IMG/VR virus record: IMGVR_UViG_3300036768_000624
Coordinates: 1 to 25,819 of that record
Reading direction: 5' to 3' (one strand)
From: a virus
DNA length: 25,819 nt
Each line of letters starts with the position of its first letter. Position 1 is the first letter of the stretch. Shown one piece after another: positions 2,950-23,213 of this stretch. The translations under genes were made by a program, and so were the position numbers. Under the pieces are notes generated by a model. It did not search any database, was not told the DNA's origin, and saw only the letters and a list, made by a program, of their open reading frames with translations.

Positions 2950-3646
2950 ATATGCAAACCTCTTTTACCGGACATTTAGAACAAGTGAATATATTAGGAT
3001 TAGGTTTGAAGTTATATGTGTTTGTGTATATTGTAGCTTGTCGATTGAAATAGTCTATATATGCTAGTCCTTGGTCTCTGGTGTAATAGGCTTTGTACTT
3101 GTCCTTAGTCTTAAGATACCAGAATTCCGTCGTAATCTCCTGAACTTCTGGGTATTTCAGGAATACTATCAACTGGTAAAGCCGTTCCTGCTCTACATGT
3201 TTGATCCCCAACCTCCCTCCGGTCTTAAAGTCGATCACGGTGGCAAAGGGCGGATCGAGAACAAGACAATCCACCTTCGCCCTTAGCCACACCGTGTCTG
3301 AGTCCCAAGCACAGGGGTTCCAGGAAGAGTCGAAAGCGAAGGGTTCTTCGGGTTTAGCACCTTGAGCTTTGAGCTTCTCCAACTCCTCCTGCCAGGGCTT
3401 GAGAACGGGCTCATCGGGAAACAGGACATCAGGAGTTGAGAGATATGTTTCGATGAGCTTATGAATCTCCTGCCCTTTCACCCCCTTCACGTAGTAGGGA
3501 TTAGGCGTCTGGTTCTGTGGTTTTACTTTATCGACATACAAGAGCTTGGCCCGATGCTGACAAACAGCGAAGTCTGCTAGTTTGCTATGGGACCAAGTAG
3601 GATCGTGTCGCCAAATGGAATCTCGTTCTGTTGTGTCAGTATCCAT
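2909..3646 (-). CDS. Cas4/RecB-like PD-(D/E)XK nuclease with probable Fe-S cluster
   Basis: DNA exonuclease of the RecB/Cas4 group, 245 aa from the ATG at 3646. Visible elements: C29 in FAVCQHRAK, H62 in GQEIHKL, D126 in the LRAKVD strand, D139-F-K141 in IDFKTG (the PD-(D/E)XK core), QLIVFLKY near 158 (motif III position), and C-x2-C-x5-C at C222, C225 and C231. One early cysteine plus three late ones is the 4Fe-4S arrangement of Cas4 and AddB-type nucleases. No cas genes or CRISPR array are present, so this is a phage recombination or replication nuclease rather than part of an adaptation module. The frame is open upstream to 3742, but the longer N-terminus lies within the VWA gene and looks non-native. 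The chosen start still overlaps that gene by 70 nt. Confidence 0.87.
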   Translation of the reverse strand: MDTDTTERDSIWRHDPTWSHSKLADFAVCQHRAKLLYVDKVKPQNQTPNPYYVKGVKGQEIHKLIETYLSTPDVLFPDEPVLKPWQEELEKLKAQGAKPEEPFAFDSSWNPCAWDSDTVWLRAKVDCLVLDPPFATVIDFKTGGRLGIKHVEQERLYQLIVFLKYPEVQEITTEFWYLKTKDKYKAYYTRDQGLAYIDYFNRQATIYTNTYNFKPNPNIFTCSKCPVKEVCIYAVPTPKNIRKLF

Positions 3647-4689
3647 AGCACCGGATAAAAGGGTTGTTCTGAAGGAAAGGCTCCGAATCCATCGGTAAAG
3701 TAAATCAGAACATCGGGTTGAAGTCCCTGCTCTTTTACCCACTCGAATGGAGGAACAAAGTCAGTTCCGCCTCCGCCAACTGGGTGGAAAATCACTGGAG
3801 TGTACTCATCGAAATAGTCTACCCTAGCTATCTTCGCGTCGCAATAGAGGACATAAGTATTCTCTGCTCCAATCTCTTCCTTGATAGCGTTAATCTCTGC
3901 AGCGAAGACTCTGAGCTGCTCGTTAGAGATAGAGGCAGAGGTATCGATGACGAGTATCTGCGTAGAGAGTTTCGGAACCTTTGTCTTTCCCGGCAGATAG
4001 AGGGACCGAGCGATGAATCGACGATTCGGTCTTGTCCAACTCAGGTCCGGAGAAGGAGTTAGAGAAGAGAAGTATCTCCGTAGCTGCTCCCTCCAGGGGA
4101 TTTTAGGAGTGATGAGTTCCTCCACCAGCCGGGCGATGCCTGCAGGTAGCTTCCCTGCCTGTTCTGCGACCTGCTTGGCCTGCACGAGTTTTTGCTTCAT
4201 CCGTGCTTCGGCTTCTGGACTAGAGACAGGAGATTCCTGAAGATCCTCCATACACAGGTTTAAACTCTGCTCCTTGGCCTTGTTGTAGAGCAAAGCATAA
4301 ATCTCCTCAGCTGTCTTGTCTTCAAAAGCTGGCTCGTACAGCGCGCCTTTTGGTAGCTTGAATCCAGACTTCAAGAGAAGCGGGTTGATAGCAAAATCGC
4401 AAGCAGCGTTCCACAGGAACCGATCCCGATCCTTTAACCGGGTGCAATGGAGAAGAGCTGCGTGCAGAACCTCATGGCATAGAGTACCTTGGAGTTCCTC
4501 GTCCGTGAGGGACTTAACGAAAGCGGGGTTATAAAGAATTATCTCTCCGTTCGTCGCTACTGTTGGTACTTGCTCACTCTCTTTTATAGGCATCTGAAGA
4601 AGCAAGCAACCGAAGAACGGCTGCTGCATAACAAGTCGTAGCTTGGCTTTGGTAATACGGGAACTTTGAGCTTTGCGGGCTTTGCTCAT
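3577..4689 (-). CDS. DUF2201-like protein: HExxH metallopeptidase-like domain plus VWA domain
   Basis: A 370-aa protein with two recognisable parts. The N-terminal half has HEVLHAALLH (72-81), a zinc-type HExxH followed by a further histidine, as in the putative metallopeptidase domain of DUF2201 proteins. The C-terminal half is a von Willebrand A-like domain with an intact MIDAS: DTSAS (249-253), GGGGTD (305-310, T309) and FTDG (D333). Cellular relatives usually sit beside a MoxR AAA+ ATPase, and one is present in this operon at 8583-9548. Whether it cleaves protein is not known. The start at 4689 is chosen because its ATG forms an ATGA overlap with the preceding stop and has an AGAGGAAAG ribosome site 7 nt upstream. 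The frame is open further to 4752. Confidence 0.88.
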   Translation of the reverse strand: MSKARKAQSSRITKAKLRLVMQQPFFGCLLLQMPIKESEQVPTVATNGEIILYNPAFVKSLTDEELQGTLCHEVLHAALLHCTRLKDRDRFLWNAACDFAINPLLLKSGFKLPKGALYEPAFEDKTAEEIYALLYNKAKEQSLNLCMEDLQESPVSSPEAEARMKQKLVQAKQVAEQAGKLPAGIARLVEELITPKIPWREQLRRYFSSLTPSPDLSWTRPNRRFIARSLYLPGKTKVPKLSTQILVIDTSASISNEQLRVFAAEINAIKEEIGAENTYVLYCDAKIARVDYFDEYTPVIFHPVGGGGTDFVPPFEWVKEQGLQPDVLIYFTDGFGAFPSEQPFYPVLWILTQQNEIPFGDTILLGPIAN

Positions 4690-5366
4690 GGATTGACTTT
4701 CCTCTGGATGATGGTTAGTGCGCCGAGGTCTTTGTATAGTTCCAGTCTCCATCCCGTAGGGTTAAGGTTCACGATGTTCGGGTCTGCGAAAGCTTCCTTG
4801 CCATGCTTCAAGTAGGAATCGTAGAGCTTAAGTAAATCTTCGTAGATCATTCCTCTTAGAATGGTACCTTTCGGAATGAGCTGTTTATAAAACTCCTGTG
4901 CTTGCTGTAAGTCTTTCAAGAACTTATTTACTTCGCGCTTAGCTGAGTAATCCCATATTCCCTCTTTGATGATAGGCTCTTGCCCGTGCAGATAATAGTT
5001 TCGTGTCTTCTCGTCGTATCGATATTCCTGTCCTTGTATTAAAGGATATTCCTTTCCTTCCAGGTAATACCGGTGATTTTTACGGGTTATGCCCTTGCCT
5101 AGAATAGATTTTAAATAAACGATGTATGGAAAATACAACGAATCGAGGCGTACGATAAACCCTTCCTCCATGATGGAGTGTATGGTCACCGTGATAGCAC
5201 GGAACAAAGTAGCATAGCAACTATAAAGTTGATACCCATTTTTCCCGATCCGAATCATCCGGAAATCTTTCAGGCTTCGAGGCCCTTCGGGAAAATCTGG
5301 AAAGAGCCTTTTATCTTTTATAAGACCTTTATCGAGAAGGCTATCTAGAAAGCGTTCTCTATCCAT
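4686..5366 (-). CDS. Hypothetical protein, 226 aa
   Basis: Not recognised. It is soluble, mixed charged and tyrosine-rich (the middle holds several Tyr-rich strands such as HRYYLEGKEY and RNYYLHGQEP), with no transmembrane segment, signal peptide or cysteine cluster. The two short strands just named resemble each other and may be a small internal repeat. The start at 5366 has a GGAG site 7 nt upstream and lies 22 nt inside the previous gene; the stop overlaps the VWA gene start as ATGA. It therefore belongs to the same translational unit as the three-paralogue block upstream and the VWA protein downstream, and may act with one of them. It does not show the shared motifs of the three paralogues. 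Confidence 0.75.
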   Translation of the reverse strand: MDRERFLDSLLDKGLIKDKRLFPDFPEGPRSLKDFRMIRIGKNGYQLYSCYATLFRAITVTIHSIMEEGFIVRLDSLYFPYIVYLKSILGKGITRKNHRYYLEGKEYPLIQGQEYRYDEKTRNYYLHGQEPIIKEGIWDYSAKREVNKFLKDLQQAQEFYKQLIPKGTILRGMIYEDLLKLYDSYLKHGKEAFADPNIVNLNPTGWRLELYKDLGALTIIQRKVNP

Positions 5367-5938
5367 AGCAATCTCCGTATGAAGTTGGCTTCGTGCTCAG
5401 TCAACAAAGAGTCCTGAGCGGATGTTTCAGGTATCCACTCCTCTGGAATGGAACCTCGGAGTAACGGGATAAGTTCAGGCATTTGGGCTAAAATGTCTTT
5501 GGGATGAGAGTCTATTAGTTTATCGTACTTATAAAGGATGTTTCTTTCTCCTATAAGAGATAAGTTACAAATGTCTTTGCACATAGCTATCAGGCTATCG
5601 AACTTAGAGAACGAGCGTATTTTGGTGTAAGGAACATGTATATAATGAAGAAGAACAGGAAAAGTTTGTATTGTGTATGGGTATCTAATTTCTATATAGC
5701 TATCTGGGTCCAAGTAAATTAGTAAATATGGTCCCAATTTTCCTCCGATAGAGAGCAAGTGCTCTCTAAATCCCGGGGGAGCAACTTTCAAGTAAGATGT
5801 GTAGGGATCAAAGACAAAGCTAAAAAACTCTTCTTCGTTGTCATGTATGAGCTTAGCGATGGTGTTAGTTAGAATAACCTTAGCCCTATTAAACTTCTTC
5901 GTTATTTCGTCACGTAGTGCGAGGCAAGCGGTATTCAT
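5345..5938 (-). CDS. Hypothetical protein, tandem family member A (197 aa)
   Basis: Unrecognised family; third in transcription order of three adjacent paralogues. Shared landmarks are HDNEEEFFSFVFDPYTSYL near residue 32-50, LSIGG, a DSYIEIRYP strand, an aromatic block PYTKIRSFSKFDSLIAMC near 104-120, and a short helical C-terminus rich in L and I. There is no signal peptide or membrane segment; the composition (Tyr, Phe, Leu with many charges) suggests a soluble alpha/beta protein. The ATG overlaps the stop of member B as ATGA, so translation is probably coupled. Function cannot be inferred from the sequence alone; its place between the MoxR ATPase and the VWA protein makes it a candidate client or partner of that pair. 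Confidence 0.78.
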   Translation of the reverse strand: MNTACLALRDEITKKFNRAKVILTNTIAKLIHDNEEEFFSFVFDPYTSYLKVAPPGFREHLLSIGGKLGPYLLIYLDPDSYIEIRYPYTIQTFPVLLHYIHVPYTKIRSFSKFDSLIAMCKDICNLSLIGERNILYKYDKLIDSHPKDILAQMPELIPLLRGSIPEEWIPETSAQDSLLTEHEANFIRRLLWIENAF

Positions 5939-6525
5939 GGCATCATATTCAACTGGTTTAAGAACGTCAGAATATGCGGAGGAGTTAGTTGCTTTCCCGG
6001 CTTTGGGAGACTAGCTTTGTAATGGGATTTGATATAAGGAACAAAGCACATGTTGTGTCTAAGGAATTGACGAAATACAGGGTATTTGTATTTGGTGTCC
6101 GTTATATAGTTATGAACATGCCTGCCTCCTTCCGTCAGGATAAAGTGGAGTAGGCAATCGTTCCTTAGTTCGGGGAAGAACGATAATTGTTTTAGCTTGT
6201 GATAGGGATATATTAGAGAGGATCCCTGGAAGGGATGAGGTTTATGGATGGTTACAGAGGCATAGATCTTATGCTGTGGGTCTTCATCGAAATATAAATG
6301 ATATAAATCGTACTGACCATTATAGTTCCTGGTCTGGACTATCTCGTCTATGAAGTCTTGAGAAAAGTCGGGTAGAACGTAAGGTTCATAGAGCTTAGCC
6401 AGGAATTCCTTCTCGTTTTGTCTAATGAGACGGATTATGCGAGCATCGCAAGCTTCAAGTGTAGAATCTATGCGTTTGTATAGATTATCTTTGAGTATAC
6501 GGTAATAGTCTTCTGATGTATACAT
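5935..6525 (-). CDS. Hypothetical protein, tandem family member B (196 aa)
   Basis: Second and most diverged of the three adjacent paralogues. The family pattern is still visible: RQNEKEFLAKLYEPYV near residue 34-49, FIDEI, a strand at YASVTIHKP, the aromatic block YPYHKLKQLSFFPELRNDCL, and a C-terminal helix HILTFLNQLNMM. It is richer in histidine than its neighbours (for example RHVHNY). No membrane segment or catalytic motif is recognised. The ATG at 6525 has a strong GGAGG site 6 nt upstream (CCGGAGGATACA), and a 21-nt gap separates it from member C. The stop overlaps the start of member A. Confidence 0.78.
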   Translation of the reverse strand: MYTSEDYYRILKDNLYKRIDSTLEACDARIIRLIRQNEKEFLAKLYEPYVLPDFSQDFIDEIVQTRNYNGQYDLYHLYFDEDPQHKIYASVTIHKPHPFQGSSLIYPYHKLKQLSFFPELRNDCLLHFILTEGGRHVHNYITDTKYKYPVFRQFLRHNMCFVPYIKSHYKASLPKPGKQLTPPHILTFLNQLNMMP

Positions 6526-6546
6526 TGTATCCTCCGGTTTGGTTGT

Positions 6547-7140
6547 TTATAGTTGAGACATGAATTCGACTTTCCTTATATACTCAGACAAGTTCTCAGG
6601 AAGCATCCGTGCTCCTCTGCGCAAAGGACGAGTTTTGAAATAGAAGTATTTGTTTACATGGCGATAGAGTTCTGGGTAGGTTCGCAATAATTGCAAAAGA
6701 GAATAGTTTTTCTCTGTACACTCTGTAGCGATGAAATCTTTTAATTCTTGTAGACGGTTTTCAAAGTACTTTATGGTAATGCATTGAACATAAACGGCTG
6801 TGAATTTAGGGAATTTGCTGAGGCGGTCGTGTTTAATTAGAATAGTAGAGAGCGGCATAGAAAAGTTTTTAGGAGGGTACGTAATAGAGAGGTAATCGTT
6901 AGGTGTATACCCAAGATGTATAGTGAAGTTTGTACCTCCGGTAATGGAGTAATAAGATATTTCTTGAAAGAAAGGAAGGATTTTGGTATATGGTTCTCGA
7001 TATTCACCTAATACAGCGTTAAAGAATTCCTCCTCATGATCATTAAGAAACAGAATTAGTTTTATCTTGAGTTTTTTAACCGCTTCCGAATTGCGTTGTT
7101 CGAGGTACCAGTTTAACTGGTCTAAAACACGACGATCCAT
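6547..7140 (-). CDS. Hypothetical protein, tandem family member C (197 aa)
   Basis: First in transcription order of the three paralogues. Landmarks aligned with member A: NDHEEEFFNAVL against HDNEEEFFSFVF, EPYTKIL against DPYTSYL, SITGG against SIGG, NDYLSITYP against DSYIEIRYP, and LSKFPKFTAVYVQC against IRSFSKFDSLIAMC. The three lengths (197, 196, 197 aa) are almost identical, as expected from tandem duplication. The start has an AGGAGGGA ribosome site 4-5 nt upstream. No motif for a known enzyme is seen. The gene follows the fused membrane/zinc gene by 19 nt. Confidence 0.78.
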   Translation of the reverse strand: MDRRVLDQLNWYLEQRNSEAVKKLKIKLILFLNDHEEEFFNAVLGEYREPYTKILPFFQEISYYSITGGTNFTIHLGYTPNDYLSITYPPKNFSMPLSTILIKHDRLSKFPKFTAVYVQCITIKYFENRLQELKDFIATECTEKNYSLLQLLRTYPELYRHVNKYFYFKTRPLRRGARMLPENLSEYIRKVEFMSQL

Positions 7141-8582: not shown

Positions 8583-9548
8583 TTAAAACAACATCTCTGC
8601 ATTGTTCTTCGACCACTCCGTAAACTCCGGAGTCATGAGGAGTTCCGGGTTCTTCTTTACGGCATCCTTGAAGAACGCCGTTTGAAACTCCACTGGCAAG
8701 CGAAGGAGGAAACGATAGACCTTGGGAAAGTCCTCCCTCTTTATCCGGTATGCCAGCATGGTCGTGATAGCATAGAGCGTTGCCAGCTCGGTGGGAGGAG
8801 TCCGGTCTGGGTTCTCCACGATCTCCTCGTACGTGAGGAGGTCTTTGTAGATAGCAAGATAGGCCGTGAACTCCGTCGCCACTGCCTCCCCGACGGTGGA
8901 TACAACTAAGGGGTATGGAGAGGCATGGGGGCTTGTGGTTAAGAGTCGAGAGAGGAAAGTCCAGCTTCGTGGAGTAGCGAATGAGGACACCTCCCTCTTG
9001 GTCGGGTCGAACGTATTGAGTAACTCAGGCCTAAACTTTAAGAACGCCACGATTGCCTCATGTATGTCATGCCGCATCGCCCACTCGACCCAGTCCTCCA
9101 GTGTGGTCTCCACCTCTATGTGAGCCATCCTGTTCTTGAGAGCTGAAGAGAGCGGATTGGCTAGAGCTGCGTCGGAAAGGCGATTCCCGGCTGCGAGGAT
9201 AGTCCAGCCAGGTGGGAGCTTATAGTTCCCGACCTTACGGTCTAGGATAAGTTGATACGCTGCGGCTTGAACCGAGCGGTCAGCCTGGTTGAGCTCATCG
9301 AGAAAGAGGATTCCCTCTCCAGTTGTAGGTAAAAAATCCGGTGGACACCAGGTAGTCTGCCCGTTCTCGACTCTAGGCAGACCTCGGAGATCGACTGCGT
9401 CGAGCTGAGAGAGACGCAAGTCTATCACAAGCAGGCCCATGGAGTGGACGAGATCGGATTTCCCGACCCCTGGTGGGCCCCAGAGCATGACAGGGATCTT
9501 AGCAGCTATGTATGCAGGTAAGATGGTTTTGACTTCGGATATACGCAT
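8583..9548 (-). CDS. MoxR-type AAA+ ATPase
   Basis: A 321-aa AAA+ ATPase. Walker A is GPPGVGKS (24-31), Walker B is ILFLDEL (80-86, D84/E85), sensor 1 is AAGN (119-122), and NRM at 139-141 is in the place of the arginine finger. The insert-containing layout with LNQADRSVQAAAYQLILDR after Walker B is typical of MoxR proteins. In bacteria MoxR ATPases pair with VWA-domain proteins and work as chaperones that mature or remodel metal-containing or multi-subunit complexes. Here a VWA protein with a metallopeptidase-like domain lies ~3.9 kb downstream in the same operon. The ribosome site is AAAGGAGG. The phage target is unknown. Confidence 0.92.
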   Translation of the reverse strand: MRISEVKTILPAYIAAKIPVMLWGPPGVGKSDLVHSMGLLVIDLRLSQLDAVDLRGLPRVENGQTTWCPPDFLPTTGEGILFLDELNQADRSVQAAAYQLILDRKVGNYKLPPGWTILAAGNRLSDAALANPLSSALKNRMAHIEVETTLEDWVEWAMRHDIHEAIVAFLKFRPELLNTFDPTKREVSSFATPRSWTFLSRLLTTSPHASPYPLVVSTVGEAVATEFTAYLAIYKDLLTYEEIVENPDRTPPTELATLYAITTMLAYRIKREDFPKVYRFLLRLPVEFQTAFFKDAVKKNPELLMTPEFTEWSKNNAEMLF

Positions 9549-12930: not shown

Positions 12931-13030
12931 GTCTCTTTCAATCCCTTTCAATCCCTTTCAATCCCTTTCAATCCCTTTCAATCCCTTTCAATCCCTTTCA
13001 ATCCCTTTCAATCCCTTTCAATCCCTTTTA
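12931..13030. repeat. Tandem array, 10-bp unit, eight perfect copies
   Basis: ATCCCTTTCA is repeated eight times without change (12941-13020), with decayed copies GTCTCTTTCA before and ATCCCTTTTA after. On the minus strand the unit is TGAAAGGGAT. The period is close to one helical turn, so each AAA tract lies on the same face of the DNA. It lies in the upstream region of the 143-aa gene. The flank to 13130 is strongly pyrimidine-rich on the plus strand. Confidence 0.92.
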
Positions 13031-13137: not shown

Positions 13138-13216
13138 GCGAGCGGAGCGAGCTTTTAGCGAGCGAAGCGAGCGTCTTTGTTGCGAGCGAAGCGAGCCTTT
13201 AGCGAGCGAAGCGAGC
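13138..13216. repeat. Four copies of the 15-bp repeat GCGAGCGAAGCGAGC
   Basis: Copies begin at 13138 (one change: GCGGAGC core), 13158, 13182 and 13202, separated by 5 to 9 bp of T-rich sequence. A further compound copy lies at 14102-14134 and a partial one near 14029. The spacing is far too short for CRISPR spacers. Each perfect copy contains GCGAAGC, known as an unusually stable DNA mini-hairpin. Confidence 0.85.
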
Positions 13217-13289: not shown

Positions 13290-13943
13290 TTATAGAAGGT
13301 CGTCGTCCCTTCCTCCTTCGTCTTTCCAGGCTTTGAACAATCTCTTTTCATATTCCTTGAGAAGTGCTAGCTCTCCAAGTGCATCGGACCATCCTTTCAT
13401 GAACGCTCTGAGCCTCCCTGCTCTGATCCTGTCCATCCTGGACAGGACCTTTCCCGCTACCTCTGTGGCGGCGGTTCTTAGATTCTCATCGCCGGTTTCA
13501 CTGGCGATGAGGGCTTCCCACCGGGATTCTATTTCATCCCGATGTTCTCCCAACCAAGACCGCTGTTCTTCTCGCACTGCAGCTGCAGCGGTTTTATATT
13601 CCTCTGCACTAACCCCGATTTCTTTCAATAGTTCGGGGCTTGGGGTATTAATTTCCTGCTCTTGTGTGAGCAGGAAATTAATTAATCCTTCCATGGTTTG
13701 GGGAGCGGCGTACATCCGCTCTCTCGGAGACAGTGTCTCCAGTCGCCGTTCTGCCACCACATACCAAGCGGCGGCAGATTGCGCTAGCTGAAGGGCTACC
13801 TCCTCGCCTTCCGATATTGCTGGGGATCTCAAAGCCTGGTTTAAGGCTCTGAAGCCTACGCTTAAAGCAGCATTCCCTACTGCTCTGATTCCAATGTTCG
13901 GTAAGTCTTCGATTATGCTAGTGAGGATTTCTACAGTGCTCAT
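13290..13943 (-). CDS. Hypothetical helical protein, 217 aa
   Basis: Unrecognised, Ala/Glu/Arg/Leu-rich and predicted helical throughout. There is no membrane segment, although the N-terminus is mildly hydrophobic (IGIRAVGNAALSVG). The start at 13943 has AGGAG about 9 nt upstream. It appears monocistronic, with its own operator-like promoter (13984-14018) and its own strong terminator. Similarity of the SPELLKEIGVSAEEY region to the 143-aa neighbour suggests a shared origin. The position, next to the divergent control region and transcribed in the early direction, suggests an early, accessory function. Confidence 0.75.
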   Translation of the reverse strand: MSTVEILTSIIEDLPNIGIRAVGNAALSVGFRALNQALRSPAISEGEEVALQLAQSAAAWYVVAERRLETLSPRERMYAAPQTMEGLINFLLTQEQEINTPSPELLKEIGVSAEEYKTAAAAVREEQRSWLGEHRDEIESRWEALIASETGDENLRTAATEVAGKVLSRMDRIRAGRLRAFMKGWSDALGELALLKEYEKRLFKAWKDEGGRDDDLL

Positions 13944-13983
13944 TTTGGTTTTCTCCTATTCAAGTTTGTTTATTACTAAATCC

Positions 13984-14018
13984 GGTCGGTTTATCTAACC
14001 GACCTCACTCTTTGTTAA
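13984..14018 (-). promoter_or_regulatory. Putative promoter with overlapping operator for the 217-aa gene
   Basis: The inverted repeat GGTCGGTT-TATCT-AACCGACC (13984-14004, 8-bp perfect arms) overlaps a possible minus-strand -10 GATAAA (13995-13990), placed 17 bp after a -35-like TTAACA (14018-14013). A repressor bound to the repeat would cover the -10. The arms could instead form a hairpin in the mRNA leader if transcription starts further upstream. Confidence 0.45.
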
Positions 14019-14342
14019 TCTTTTTGCTGAGCGAAGCGAGGCTTAGAGGGGCTATAAGGATGGAACGGTATAGCTAGTGGAACGGCGCTCTGGTTGGTAT
14101 TGCGAGCTGAGCGAGCGGAGCGAGCGAAGCGAGCAGAGGTAAATGGTGGCACGGCGCTCAGGGGTTCCCTTTTTGCGCCCAAGGCTGAAAAGGGGAACGG
14201 GGTACTGTCTTGGCAGGGGGCACCCCCAACCTGTCTCGGTAATTTATGGCAAAATTTCTTGGTTCTTAGCCTCTATTCCGCATAGTTCTTAATTCCGCTA
14301 TTTCTATTTTGCACCCCGCACGATTGCATGATTTTCTATCTT
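14019..14342. other. Non-coding spacer with dispersed repeats
   Basis: No supported gene. It contains a compound run of GAGCGAGCGGAGCGAGCGAA-type repeats (14102-14134), a partial copy near 14029, and two copies of the word CACGGCGCTC-like (GGAACGGCGCTC near 14080 and GGCACGGCGCTC near 14148). The short plus-strand frame across it has no ribosome site and consists of repeat translation. Confidence 0.5.
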
Positions 14343-14422
14343 GCATAGCTGCATAGCTGCATAGCTGCATAGCTGCATAGCTGCATAGTTGCATAGCTGC
14401 ATAGCTGCATAGCTGCATAGCT
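14343..14422. repeat. Tandem array, 8-bp unit, ten copies
   Basis: GCATAGCT is repeated ten times head to tail. Nine copies are perfect and one (14383-14390) is GCATAGTT; a truncated copy follows. The array ends 9 bp before the -35 of the putative late promoter. Each unit contains AGCT, and each junction TGCA, so the array is dense in short palindromes. It could be a binding array (iteron- or operator-like) or a replication-slippage product. Confidence 0.92.
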
Positions 14423-14431
14423 GCATACCCC

Positions 14432-14460
14432 TTGCACCCCAATCAACTATCTGCTATATT
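14432..14460 (+). promoter_or_regulatory. Putative extended -10 promoter of the rightward operon
   Basis: TTGCAC (14432-14437) is followed after 17 bp by TATATT (14455-14460), which is preceded by TGC, giving an extended -10 (TGnTATATT). The -35 is poor (3 of 6 matches) but the extended -10 can compensate. Transcription would start near 14467, with a leader of about 28 nt before the Cro-like gene. Confidence 0.5.
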
Positions 14461-14494
14461 AAATCCGCCTTTATAAATAACCAGGAGATTTATC

Positions 14495-14773
14495 ATGACT
14501 TTAAACGAAGCTGTATCTTACTTTGGGTCTCTACACAAACTTGCTCGTGCGCTAGGTTTAAATACCCAATCTGTAAAAACCTGGAAGGAGCAGATCCCAA
14601 TCTTGCGTCAATACCAAATCGAATTGGCCACAGACGGGAAACTAAAAGCGGATCTTCCTGCTATCGTCGACATCCGCTATGCCCCAGGTTTCGACCCCAA
14701 AACGATGGTGGCATACGTCGTTGCTAAGAAGAGAGAGGAAGGAGCGGAAGGAACTGAAGGAACGGAAGCTTAA
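14495..14773 (+). CDS. P22 Cro-like helix-turn-helix regulator
   Basis: A 92-aa DNA-binding protein. Residues 9-51 (YFGSLHKLARALGLNTQS...) follow the P22 Cro pattern: FG-x-x-x-x-(L/V)-A-(R/K)-ALG, then a recognition helix, then WKE-x-IP and a TxGxLK end. The helix-turn-helix covers roughly residues 12-31. The C-terminal tail ends in a Glu/Gly/Thr repeat (EGAEGTEGTEA) encoded by a near-tandem GGAAC/GGAAG stretch and is likely unstructured. AGGAG lies 7 nt before the ATG. It is the first gene behind the rightward promoter and 2 nt ahead of terS. In P22-type phages Cro represses early transcription; here it could tune the early/late switch or bind its own promoter, which is inference. Confidence 0.82.
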   Translation: MTLNEAVSYFGSLHKLARALGLNTQSVKTWKEQIPILRQYQIELATDGKLKADLPAIVDIRYAPGFDPKTMVAYVVAKKREEGAEGTEGTEA

Positions 14774-14775
14774 CC

Positions 14776-15342
14776 TTGTCTGTCTCCGACCAACTTAACA
14801 AGCTAGAGATCCTAGAAAAAATGCTCCTCCCATGGGAGGAGCATTTTGCTGACCTAACTCCCGAAGAGCGACGCTTTGTTCTGCTCGTCGTACGGCAACG
14901 AGTTCCTATCCGCACCGCCCTACGAGAGACGGGCGTAAAGAAACTAACAGATAAACTGATAGCCGCCTGCGAGCATGAACAAAAGATGCTGGCAAAATCG
15001 TCGGGAATCTCTCGTAAGCGGGTGCTGGAGGGGTTTCTCGAAGCTATAGAGCTTGCAAAGATTCAAGCTGATCCGTCTGCAATGATCGCAGGCTGGCGGG
15101 AAATAGGGCGGATGTGCGGGTATTATGAACCTGAAAAGAAGGAAATTTCCCTTTCGGTCGACGCTTCAAACCTCTATAATAGGCTACGTGAGCTACCAGA
15201 TGAGGTGCTATTACGCATAGTAGAAGAGTCAGACGTCCAGGAGCCCATTGATGTCATCCCCATTACCCCCTCTGCCTCCCTCCCTGAACCGGAAAACTCC
15301 GAAGCCTCCGGAGGACCACAAGGTGAAGGCGAGGAATCTTAA
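14776..15342 (+). CDS. Terminase small subunit
   Basis: A 188-aa DNA-recognition subunit of the packaging motor. Its position directly before terL and a body typical of phage small terminases support the call: a helical DNA-binding N-terminal half (TPEERRFVLLVVRQRVPIRT...), then ISRKRVLEGFLEAIELAKIQ and the characteristic MIAGWREIGRMCGYYEPEK near residues 107-125. The tail is acidic and proline-rich. The start is a TTG at 14776 with weak GGAAG upstream; the alternative ATG at 14821 lies inside a perfect palindrome. In headful-packaging phages the pac site often lies within this gene. Confidence 0.86.
   Translation: MSVSDQLNKLEILEKMLLPWEEHFADLTPEERRFVLLVVRQRVPIRTALRETGVKKLTDKLIAACEHEQKMLAKSSGISRKRVLEGFLEAIELAKIQADPSAMIAGWREIGRMCGYYEPEKKEISLSVDASNLYNRLRELPDEVLLRIVEESDVQEPIDVIPITPSASLPEPENSEASGGPQGEGEES
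14818..14847. repeat. Perfect 30-bp palindrome inside terS
   Basis: AAAATGCTCCTCCCA and its exact complement meet at a CATG centre, giving 30 bp without a mismatch. As RNA it gives a 13-bp hairpin with a 4-nt loop ending in UUUU. It lies in codons 15-24 of terS. Possible roles are a packaging (pac) recognition site, a protein-binding site or an attenuator. Confidence 0.9.
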
Positions 15343-16909
15343 AGAAATAGAGCGTGTACTTGCGCTTCGTTTGCTCTGCCGCCGAGGTCTTTTGCACTTC
15401 GTGAAGGCCTTTTTCCCTACTTACAAGGCTGGCTGGGTGCATGAGGACATAGCCCTTAGACTGCAGTGGTTCTTCTCTGAGGTCAAAGCTCAAAAATCCC
15501 CTCGTTTGATGCTCCTAATGCCTCCCAGGACAGGGAAATCTACCCTGGCCTCTGTTTACTTCCCCGCCTGGGCCTTAGGGCAGGACCCTACATTGGAGTT
15601 CATGGTAGTGGGGTATAACACCGAGCTCCCCATCTACTTTTCCCGTCGTTGCCGAGACCTCGTCCGCTCCCCAGAGTACCGGGCTATTTTCCCCCATACT
15701 GTCCTGGACGAGGAGTCTAAGGCCGTCGACCACTGGCGCGTGACCCAGGGAGGGAGCTACCGCGCCGTAGGCGTCTCGGCAGGTCAGACAGGGTTGGGAG
15801 CCCATTGTCTCATTATCGATGATCCCATCAAGAACATAGAAGAAGCGGACTCGTCTCTTATTCGCGACAAGCTGTGGGACTGGTACCAGTCTACAGCGTA
15901 CACTCGTCTCGCCCCTGGTGCCGGAGTCCTTGTCATCCAGACCCGCTGGCACTACGATGACTTGGCGGGTCGTCTGCTCGCTCCCGATGCGCACGACAAG
16001 TTCAAGGTGGTCCGGTACCCAGCCCTCGCAGAAGAGTACGAGTACTGGACGCATACGCGAGAGCTGGTGACCTCAACCGTCCCCCTGCAGGACCCCACTC
16101 TCACCCTCCTCCGTCAGCCAGGGGACCCCTTGCACCCTGAGAGGTACGGGAAAGAACAACTAGAGGCCATACGAGCTACGCTACAGCCCCGTCTCTGGGC
16201 CTCATTGTACCAGCAGCGCCCCTCTCCAGAGGAGGGAGCTATCTTTACCCGCGAGATGTTCAAGTACTGCCCCTCTGACACCCCTACCCTGTCCCCTACG
16301 ACCCCTTATCGTGTCCTGGTGACAGTGGACTTCGCTATTGGGCAGAAGCAGCAGAACGACTTCTCGGTCATCGCTGTTCTCTATCAGACGCTGGACGAGG
16401 AGGACCTGCTCTATGTAGCTGACATCAAGCGCTTCAAGGCTGCCTCGCTCGACATAATCGAGGCCATACTGGCCACATTGCGCCACTATCGTGCTCAGTC
16501 CCAACGCCGCTATGTGTTGCTAGGGGTCGAGGACGGGCAGATATGGAGGTCGATAAAACCCCTCTTCCAGAAGCGCCAGAGGGAGGAGCGTCTATATGTC
16601 CCCCTCCAGGAGCTCAAGCCCCTGACCGACAAGGTCGCTCGTGCCCGGCCTTTTCAGGGCCGTATGCAGCAGGGCAGGGTCATTTTCCCTCGCTCTGCTC
16701 CGTGGCTGGCTGAAGCACAGTCGGAGCTCTTGACATTCCCCGCAGGGGTGCATGATGATATAGTGGATGCGCTGGCCTGGGGTGCTCATCTAGCCCTTCT
16801 GTCCTCTTCTCCCTCCGCAGGCACCCGACCTCAGGCCAGCTCCTCTTCTACCCCCTCCTGGTTGCGAGGGGTCCTGCAGGGAGGGAAAGGGAGCCACATG
16901 GCAGCTTAA
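15323..16909 (+). CDS. Terminase large subunit (ATPase-nuclease)
   Basis: DNA-packaging motor, 528 aa from the GTG at 15323. ATPase: Walker A-like PPRTGKS (67-73), Walker B LIIDDP (163-168), and a coupling-like IQTRWH near 205. RNase H-like nuclease: D336 in TVDFAIG, E403-D404 in GVEDGQ, and DDIVDA (478-483) as acidic metal ligands. The GTG start is preferred because GGAGG lies 8 nt upstream within terS; an ATG at 15251 in the same frame would overlap terS by 92 nt and adds a proline-rich leader that is likely not native. The protein cuts concatemeric DNA and drives it into the prohead through the portal. Confidence 0.94.
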   Translation: MKARNLKEIERVLALRLLCRRGLLHFVKAFFPTYKAGWVHEDIALRLQWFFSEVKAQKSPRLMLLMPPRTGKSTLASVYFPAWALGQDPTLEFMVVGYNTELPIYFSRRCRDLVRSPEYRAIFPHTVLDEESKAVDHWRVTQGGSYRAVGVSAGQTGLGAHCLIIDDPIKNIEEADSSLIRDKLWDWYQSTAYTRLAPGAGVLVIQTRWHYDDLAGRLLAPDAHDKFKVVRYPALAEEYEYWTHTRELVTSTVPLQDPTLTLLRQPGDPLHPERYGKEQLEAIRATLQPRLWASLYQQRPSPEEGAIFTREMFKYCPSDTPTLSPTTPYRVLVTVDFAIGQKQQNDFSVIAVLYQTLDEEDLLYVADIKRFKAASLDIIEAILATLRHYRAQSQRRYVLLGVEDGQIWRSIKPLFQKRQREERLYVPLQELKPLTDKVARARPFQGRMQQGRVIFPRSAPWLAEAQSELLTFPAGVHDDIVDALAWGAHLALLSSSPSAGTRPQASSSSTPSWLRGVLQGGKGSHMAA

Positions 16910-22168: not shown

Positions 22169-22570
22169 ATGGGCTATAATTTGATTCTCAATCGTAACTA
22201 TGTTCTTGCTACTACTAAGGGGCATGTTATAGAATTTAAGAAAGGAGTACCGGTGTATGTCCCGGATTCGGTGCTCTCTGAGGCTCTGGCTATCGGGGCG
22301 GTGACTAAGTCCGGGGAACCTCCTGTGTTAGAGGAGGAGAAAGCGCCATCCGGTGCTCCTTCTGGGTTAATGGATCGCTTAGCTGCGCTGGAGAAGGCAA
22401 TTGATACTCTGGTAAAGCGTAATGCTCGCGGGGATTTCACTGCTGCTGGAGCTCCTTCTTTGAATGCCTTGAAGGAGATCCTCGGTTGGGTTCCTAGCCC
22501 CCGTGAACTTCAGCAAGCGTGGCTGGCGTATGCAGAAAGGAACCTAGCTCCTACCGGCAAAAATGGATAG
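22169..22570 (+). CDS. Hypothetical virion-region protein, 133 aa
   Basis: Not firmly recognised. The N-terminal half is beta-rich (YNLILNRNYVLATTKGHVIEFKKG is split here across positions 3-26), then comes a Pro/Glu linker, then helices (LMDRLAALEKAIDTLVKR). Proteins like this commonly lie between capsid and neck genes in podovirus-like genomes. The start has AAGAGG 7 nt upstream. The last 8 nt overlap the next gene. A head-completion role is suggested by position only. Confidence 0.68.
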   Translation: MGYNLILNRNYVLATTKGHVIEFKKGVPVYVPDSVLSEALAIGAVTKSGEPPVLEEEKAPSGAPSGLMDRLAALEKAIDTLVKRNARGDFTAAGAPSLNALKEILGWVPSPRELQQAWLAYAERNLAPTGKNG

Positions 22571-23213
22571 CAGTGAACTGTATAGCCTATTTCGAGCGTC
22601 TGTTCGTGATGATGTCCAACCTTATCTTTGGTCGGACGAGGAAGTTTTTGCTTTCATGGACGACGCTCAGAAGATGTTTTGCCGTTTTTCCTACGGGATA
22701 GTTGACTCCACCTCCACACTGACCACTTGGGCTGTCCCCGCAGGGACAGCCTTTTTTTCTTATGACCCTCGTATTCTTAAGCTTGTGGGTGCGCGTCTAG
22801 AGGATGGCACAGAACTGGAGATTTTGAATTACGAGGACGGTGCTATTCGACAACGATTTAAATTAGATGATCGTCACGGAAAGATAAAATACGTTATTAC
22901 TAACATGGATTCGTCTGCGGTTAGGTTTGTTTATATACCAGATGCGGATACTACTATTCGTCTTACTATAGAGCGTTTGCCGTTAGTCCCTATTCAATTC
23001 GACAGCCAGCTTTTTGAGATAGAAGAGCAGCATCATATACATTTATTAAGCTGGATGAAGTATTTAGCTTATAGCAAACATGATGCTGAAACCTTTGATC
23101 CAGTAAAAGCGCAGGCGTTCCAACAAGAATTTATATCTTACTGTACTTTTGCTAAGAACGAAAAGGCAAGAAGACAACATAAATACCGCTCCGTCGTTTA
23201 TGGGGGATTGTAG
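22563..23213 (+). CDS. Probable head-tail adaptor (neck) protein, 216 aa
   Basis: A helical protein likely attaching below the portal. The N-terminal LYSLFRASVRDDVQPYLWSDEEVF and MDDAQKMFCRF resemble the helical bundle of phage adaptor proteins (P22 gp4 / DUF6682-like), followed by a beta-rich domain (LVGARLEDGTELEILNYEDG) and a C-terminal helix pair (HIHLLSWMKYLAYSKHDAET). The start overlaps the previous gene by 8 nt and has little ribosome site. Unusually, codons 56-65 form a perfect terminator-like hairpin followed by seven T (22730-22758). Confidence 0.72.
   Translation: MDSSELYSLFRASVRDDVQPYLWSDEEVFAFMDDAQKMFCRFSYGIVDSTSTLTTWAVPAGTAFFSYDPRILKLVGARLEDGTELEILNYEDGAIRQRFKLDDRHGKIKYVITNMDSSAVRFVYIPDADTTIRLTIERLPLVPIQFDSQLFEIEEQHHIHLLSWMKYLAYSKHDAETFDPVKAQAFQQEFISYCTFAKNEKARRQHKYRSVVYGGL
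22730..22758 (+). terminator. Terminator-like hairpin inside a coding sequence
   Basis: GGCTGTCCC (22730-22738), loop CGCA, GGGACAGCC (22743-22751), then TTTTTTT (22752-22758). This is a textbook intrinsic terminator, yet it lies within the adaptor gene and encodes WAVPAGTAFF. It would end part of the transcripts before the lysis genes or act as an attenuator coupled to translation. Confidence 0.82.

What the first reader, a model, noticed from the sequence alone, without database searches (positions are those of the whole stretch)
14818..14847. Perfect 30-bp palindrome inside the small terminase gene
The sequence shows an uninterrupted 30-bp palindrome centred on CATG within codons 15-24 of terS. 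Such length is unlikely by chance and it also constrains the protein. Pac sites of P22-like phages lie within the small terminase gene (established), so this is a candidate packaging recognition site. As RNA it folds into a 13-bp hairpin ending in UUUU and would bury an in-frame ATG at 14821, so control of terS translation or attenuation is an alternative.
Basis: partly seen in the sequence, partly recalled or inferred. Interest (0 to 1): 0.62.

Follow-up and report, generated by a model that had tools for sequence, protein, structure and literature searches.

The report
Coding palindrome resembling a transcription terminator
A perfect 30-letter palindrome lies inside a phage DNA-packaging gene; it is real and far from chance, but it looks more like an RNA hairpin of the terminator type, or a copying scar, than a packaging start site.

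Summary
About 2e-5 such sites are expected in the window, and only 1 of 4608 synonymous codings of those ten residues is palindromic. One close relative (L001, 92% nt) carries it unchanged, but ten unchanged codons are expected 22% of the time at that distance, so this proves nothing. Of 68 distant TerS relatives, 66 lack any perfect inverted repeat with arms of 11 bp or more in the terS frame. The ten codons encode a low-confidence linker before the DNA-binding domain.

The pac-site reading gains no support: P22 pac is asymmetric, and this site is lineage-specific. By composition the palindrome resembles an intrinsic terminator: score 36 antisense (level with the window's intergenic terminators), 14 sense; no control coding palindrome exceeded 17. 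The window's strongest terminator-like hairpin is also intragenic (22730-22751) and persists in two relatives. I favour an RNA hairpin acting as a weak, translation-gated attenuator and antisense terminator (0.40), closely followed by a neutral scar of replication template switching (0.37). Interest is modest.

The parts
14818..14847 (.). perfect 30-bp palindrome (two 15-nt arms, no spacer); RNA hairpin of 13 bp with CAUG loop
14822..14849 (+). sense-strand terminator-like reading: 9-bp stem TGCTCCTCC/GGAGGAGCA, loop CATG, tail TTTTGC; score 13.9
14816..14843 (-). antisense-strand terminator-like reading: same stem, tail TTTTTT; score 36.1
   Evidence: same in L001 (36.8)
14776..15342 (+). terS, small terminase subunit, TTG start, 188 aa; palindrome = codons 15-24
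   Evidence: position beside terL; PHROG 29190; profile match to solved small terminases 21di, 4zc3, 2cmp, 3zqp
14495..14773 (+). P22_Cro-family regulator gene, ends 2 nt before terS
   Evidence: PF14549 E = 1.1e-19; PHROG 409
15248..16909 (+). terL, large terminase subunit (longest ORF; its true start may be later)
   Evidence: PHROG 38 E = 1.8e-113
22730..22758 (+). second intragenic terminator-like hairpin (GGCTGTCCC-CGCA-GGGACAGCC TTTTTTT, score 56.4) inside the head-structural gene 22563-23213
   Evidence: kept in L118/L121 and L119/L122
13647..13682 (.). second perfect coding inverted repeat (15-bp arms, 6-nt loop) in CDS 13290-13943 (-), absent from L001; not terminator-like

Best explanation
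The palindrome is an RNA hairpin element placed in a dispensable stretch of TerS coding sequence and built like a bidirectional intrinsic terminator. In the sense direction it would act as a weak, translation-gated attenuator at the entrance of the late operon (cro-terS-terL-holin-portal-capsid). terS translation starts at a weak TTG 2 nt behind the cro stop. If ribosomes follow RNA polymerase closely the hairpin cannot form and transcription continues; if they do not, the hairpin forms and some polymerases stop at the U4 tract. In the antisense direction the longer U6 tract makes it a better terminator, which would stop leftward transcripts before they run through cro and the divergent control region. 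Shown: the sequence, the hairpin energy, terminator-like composition on both strands, the linker position, persistence in one relative. Inferred: that it terminates at all, that translation gates it, and that it is selected. It may well have arisen by template switching; origin and function are separate questions.
For: Hairpin -19.8 kcal/mol, z = -5.3, and dominant in 121 nt of context. Terminator score 36.1 antisense and 13.9 sense against 29-46 for the window's two intergenic terminators, which share the layout A-tract, GC-rich stem, 4-nt loop, T-tract. Sixteen control coding palindromes score at most 16.6. Hits of 30 or more inside genes: 2 in 20 kb here against 2 in about 627 kb of controls, one of the latter in an unannotated ORF; synonymous shuffles give 0.117 sense and 0 antisense per window. 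The other intragenic hairpin of the late operon (22730-22751) persists in two relatives with changes only in the loop plus one to a G-U pair.
Against: The sense-strand tail is short (UUUUGCUG) and its score modest. No antisense promoter is predicted nearby. No transcript data. Conservation in L001 is uninformative and homologues lack such a structure. The loop CAUG is not a typical stabilised tetraloop, unlike the GAAA/TTCG of the intergenic terminator. The comparison is post hoc: my first scan, requiring a G-C closing pair, missed the site, and the score is not calibrated for this unknown host.
Confidence: 0.4

Rival explanations
1. Neutral scar. During replication the polymerase briefly switched template at a short imperfect inverted repeat and copied one arm from the other, leaving a perfect palindrome in a linker that tolerates almost any residues. 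It has no dedicated function.
For: Template switching is known to create perfect inverted repeats, also in coding DNA (PMC8604942; PMC8794818; PMC6649704). The codons lie in a variable stretch with pLDDT below 50 at residues 16-20. Gene 13290-13943 has a 15/6 repeat that L001 lacks, and L001 has 12/9 and 11/12 repeats in the same gene that the window lacks, one overlapping a 27-nt in-frame insertion. Coding repeats with arms of 11 bp or more: 4 in 20.5 kb here against 17 in 627 kb, P = 0.003.
Against: No relative polarises the terS event, so no ancestral quasi-palindrome is seen. Related contigs G001 and G002 show no general excess (none and one). It does not predict the terminator-like composition.
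Confidence: 0.37
2. It is a DNA site bound by a symmetric protein, most naturally the Cro-type regulator encoded just upstream, acting as an operator inside terS.
For: Perfect dyad symmetry; P22_Cro-family gene ending 45 bp upstream.
Against: No second copy: other matches to an arm need 3 mismatches and are near chance. The divergent control region 13900-14520, where operators would be expected, has no inverted repeat of 10 bp or more. Thirty bp is longer than Cro operators (own knowledge: about 14-17 bp).
Confidence: 0.08
3. It is the packaging initiation (pac) site recognised by TerS.
For: P22 pac lies inside the small-terminase gene (PMC9611059; annotation). The TerS profile matches small terminases of pac phages SF6-type.
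Against: P22 pac is asymmetric and has at best a 4-bp inverted repeat. The palindrome is lineage-specific. Whether this phage packages by headful at all is unknown.
Confidence: 0.07
4. Chance coincidence of codon choice, with no mutational or selective cause.
For: The peptide permits a palindromic coding.
Against: Expected number 2.3e-5 per window; 3.8e-4 even with the peptide given.
Confidence: 0.03

Closest known systems
Bidirectional intrinsic (Rho-independent) terminators
   Same: A-tract, GC-rich stem of 8-9 bp, 4-nt loop, T-tract; score level with the two intergenic terminators of this window on one strand
   Different: Inside a coding sequence near its 5' end, with a short U-tract in the sense direction; termination not shown
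Coding palindromes from template switching (yeast coding repeats PMC8604942; nematomorph mitochondrial genes PMC6649704)
   Same: Perfect inverted repeat within a protein-coding gene, position not shared by distant relatives
   Different: Single short case in a phage; ancestral state not seen for this site
P22 pac site in gene 3
   Same: Inside the small-terminase gene
   Different: pac is a 22-bp asymmetric sequence; this is a 30-bp symmetric site near the 5' end

Membership tests
intrinsic terminator | stable GC-rich hairpin | tested here: met
   9-bp stem, -16.0 kcal/mol; full 13-bp hairpin -19.8
intrinsic terminator | U-tract directly after the hairpin | tested here: inconclusive
   U6 on the antisense strand, only U4 then GCUG on the sense strand
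intrinsic terminator | RNA 3' ends at the U-tract | not testable with these tools
   no transcript data held
template-switch coding palindrome | perfect inverted repeat in a coding gene, beyond chance | tested here: met
template-switch coding palindrome | a relative with the imperfect ancestral repeat, one arm changed as a cluster | tested here: inconclusive
   terS: L001 identical, others too distant; suggestive pattern only in gene 13290-13943
pac site (P22 type) | lies in the small-terminase gene | tested here: met
pac site (P22 type) | asymmetric recognition sequence | tested here: not met
   the site is perfectly symmetric; P22 pac is asymmetric
pac site (P22 type) | packaging series starts nearby | not testable with these tools
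   no virion reads
Cro-type operator | further copies in the control region | tested here: not met
known RNA element (Rfam 15) | match at the gathering score | tested here: not met
   no match in the window

The most novel reading that the evidence does not exclude
The late operon of this phage group carries selected terminator hairpins inside its own coding sequences (terS codons 15-24 and head-gene codons 56-63) that abort late transcription unless a ribosome follows the polymerase, so packaging and capsid genes are transcribed only while being translated.
Probability: 0.12. Interest if true: 0.6.

Novelty: new member of a known kind. Interest (0 to 1): 0.3.

Why it matters
If the hairpin terminates, it is a compact example of an intragenic, translation-gated terminator at the head of a phage packaging operon, testable with synonymous changes alone. 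If it is a template-switch scar, it is a clean case of a perfect palindrome fixed inside an essential phage gene. Either way it warns against reading a palindrome in a terminase gene as a pac site.

Tried and rejected
Exact palindrome and an 18-bp core in IMG/VR and a 22-bp core in the GTDB genome set: only L001, so not a mobile or host repeat. Rfam: nothing. Conservation of the ten codons: no power; the 62-nt identical run around the site is only seventh longest in the 4-kb alignment. A family-wide hairpin before the conserved domain: none, mean z = -0.56 in the others. Internal start at ATG 14821: the region upstream reads as coding and TTG 14776 is kept in L001. A Shine-Dalgarno-like GGAGG in the right arm: I read no useful open frame behind it. 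Assembly or amplification artefact: rejected because a 92%-identical separate contig has the same sequence. TerL relatives in GTDB genomes: none. My first terminator scan missed the site because it required a G-C closing pair; relaxing this revealed it, which makes that comparison partly post hoc. A short paper search turned up no description of terminase-gene palindromes of this kind. Structure search was not pursued because the model is weak (mean pLDDT 60).

Full report
What is there. The window is a linear IMG/VR virus record of 25,819 bases. Rightward genes start at 14495 with a P22_Cro-family gene (PF14549, 1.1e-19), followed after 2 nt by terS (TTG 14776 to 15342), then terL (PHROG 38), holin, portal, and further on the major head protein and other structural genes. 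The 30-bp palindrome at 14818-14847 is perfect and uninterrupted. Folded alone as RNA it is a 13-bp hairpin with a CAUG loop, -19.8 kcal/mol, z = -5.3, and it remains the dominant structure in 121 nt of context.

Chance. From base composition, 2.3e-5 such palindromes are expected in the window with no spacer, and 3e-4 with spacers up to 12. Holding the protein fixed, 1 of 4608 synonymous codings is palindromic, with probability 3.8e-4 at the window's codon usage. Sixty synonymous shuffles of all genes gave on average 0.08 repeats with 11-bp arms and none with arms above 13 bp. The window has two with 15-bp arms inside genes: this one and 13647-13682.

Relatives. Only one close relative was found by TerS, TerL or palindrome searches of IMG/VR: L001, 5470 bp, 92.3% nt identity over 3967 bp, TerS 95% identical. 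The palindrome is identical there. At the per-codon change rates of cro, terS and terL, ten codons of this composition stay unchanged with probability 0.22, and 16% of all ten-codon windows are unchanged, so this is not evidence of selection. The 68 more distant TerS homologues (31-57% identity) show no general hairpin before the conserved domain (mean z -0.56); 66 have no perfect repeat with arms of 11 bp or more in the frame, and two (L059, L072) have one near the beginning of the stop-to-stop frame. KPP25, the nearest named phage group, has none with arms of 8 bp or more in its terS. The palindrome therefore belongs to a narrow lineage.

Position in the protein. The profile of TerS matches solved small terminases from about residue 28 onward (21di, 4zc3, 2cmp, 3zqp). 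Residues before that vary freely among homologues. AlphaFold2 gives an N-terminal helix to residue 16, pLDDT below 50 at residues 16-20, and the helical domain from 29; the model is weak overall (mean pLDDT 60). The palindrome is thus written into a linker where residues seem cheap.

Is it pac? The best-studied case, P22, has its pac inside gene 3, but as a 22-bp asymmetric sequence (PMC9611059; annotation), with no more than a 4-bp inverted repeat. A symmetric site is not what that precedent predicts. Packaging ends cannot be mapped without virion reads. The pac reading is therefore unsupported rather than excluded.

Is it an operator? The neighbouring gene is Cro-like, but no other copy of either arm in the window is clearly above chance, and the divergent control region has no inverted repeat of 10 bp or more.

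Is it an RNA element? A d'Aubenton-Carafa-type score, written here and not calibrated for this host, was applied to both strands. The palindrome scores 36.1 on the antisense strand (tail TTTTTTCTAGG) and 13.9 on the sense strand (tail TTTTGCTG). The two intergenic terminators of the window score 29-46. Sixteen control coding palindromes score at most 16.6, so terminator character is not a general property of coding palindromes. In about 627 kb of control gene sequence two hits of 30 or more appeared, and one of them (phiA008) lies in an ORF that the record does not annotate. The window has two in 20 kb: this site and 22730-22751, the strongest of all (56.4), inside a head-structural gene (PHROG 399). 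The latter persists in L118/L121 and L119/L122 (90% and 94% nt identity of the gene): changes fall in the loop, plus one stem change to G-U, with the T7 tail unchanged. This is suggestive of RNA-level function in the operon. It is post hoc, the sense score at terS is modest, and no antisense promoter is predicted nearby.

Is it a mutational scar? Template switching is known to create perfect inverted repeats, in coding DNA too (PMC8604942, PMC8794818, PMC6649704). In gene 13290-13943 (-) the window has a 15/6 repeat that L001 lacks, while L001 has 12/9 and 11/12 repeats that the window lacks, one of them overlapping a 27-nt in-frame insertion. That is the pattern expected of the process. Coding repeats with arms of 11 bp or more are enriched in the window and L001 (4 in 20.5 kb against 17 in 627 kb, P = 0.003), but the related contigs G001 and G002 have none and one respectively, the one being the head-gene hairpin. 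For terS itself no relative polarises the event.

Verdict. The two readings left standing are an RNA hairpin of terminator type (0.40) and a neutral template-switch scar (0.37); they are compatible as function and origin. A protein operator is at 0.08 and pac at 0.07. The steps from sequence to termination, to gating by translation and to selection are inferred.

Noticed in passing
22730-22758 (+): The strongest terminator-like hairpin of the window lies inside a head-structural gene (22563-23213) and persists in L118/L121 and L119/L122; in L119 it is a perfect 22-bp palindrome followed by T7.
   Followed up: partly
13647-13682; L001 536-568 and 1049-1082: The leftward gene 13290-13943 carries a 15/6 perfect coding inverted repeat absent from L001, whose homologue carries two different ones, one overlapping a 27-nt in-frame insertion.
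   Followed up: partly
14342-14427: An 8-bp tandem repeat (TGCATAGC, 10.8 copies, 97% matches) sits just upstream of the Cro-type gene; L001 lacks this array and has a short different one there.
   Followed up: no
12935-13028: A 10-bp tandem repeat CTTTCAATCC, 9.4 copies, 100% matches.
   Followed up: no
13138-13216 and 14102-14138: Repeats of GCGAGCGAAGCGAGC type flank the gene 13290-13943; similar ones are in L001.
   Followed up: no
3577-4752 (-) and 8583-9548 (-): A DUF2201 metallopeptidase/VWA-like protein and an AAA_5 (MoxR-like) ATPase are both encoded in the leftward arm, a pairing more usual in cellular genomes (own knowledge).
   Followed up: no
5345-7140 (-): Neighbouring genes of about 197 aa look like diverged paralogues (30% identity over 99 residues between 5345-5938 and 6547-7140, E = 1e-7); no Pfam match for the one tested.
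   Followed up: no
14495-14773: A P22_Cro-family regulator is the first gene of the rightward packaging operon, only 2 nt ahead of terS, in both the window and L001.
   Followed up: no
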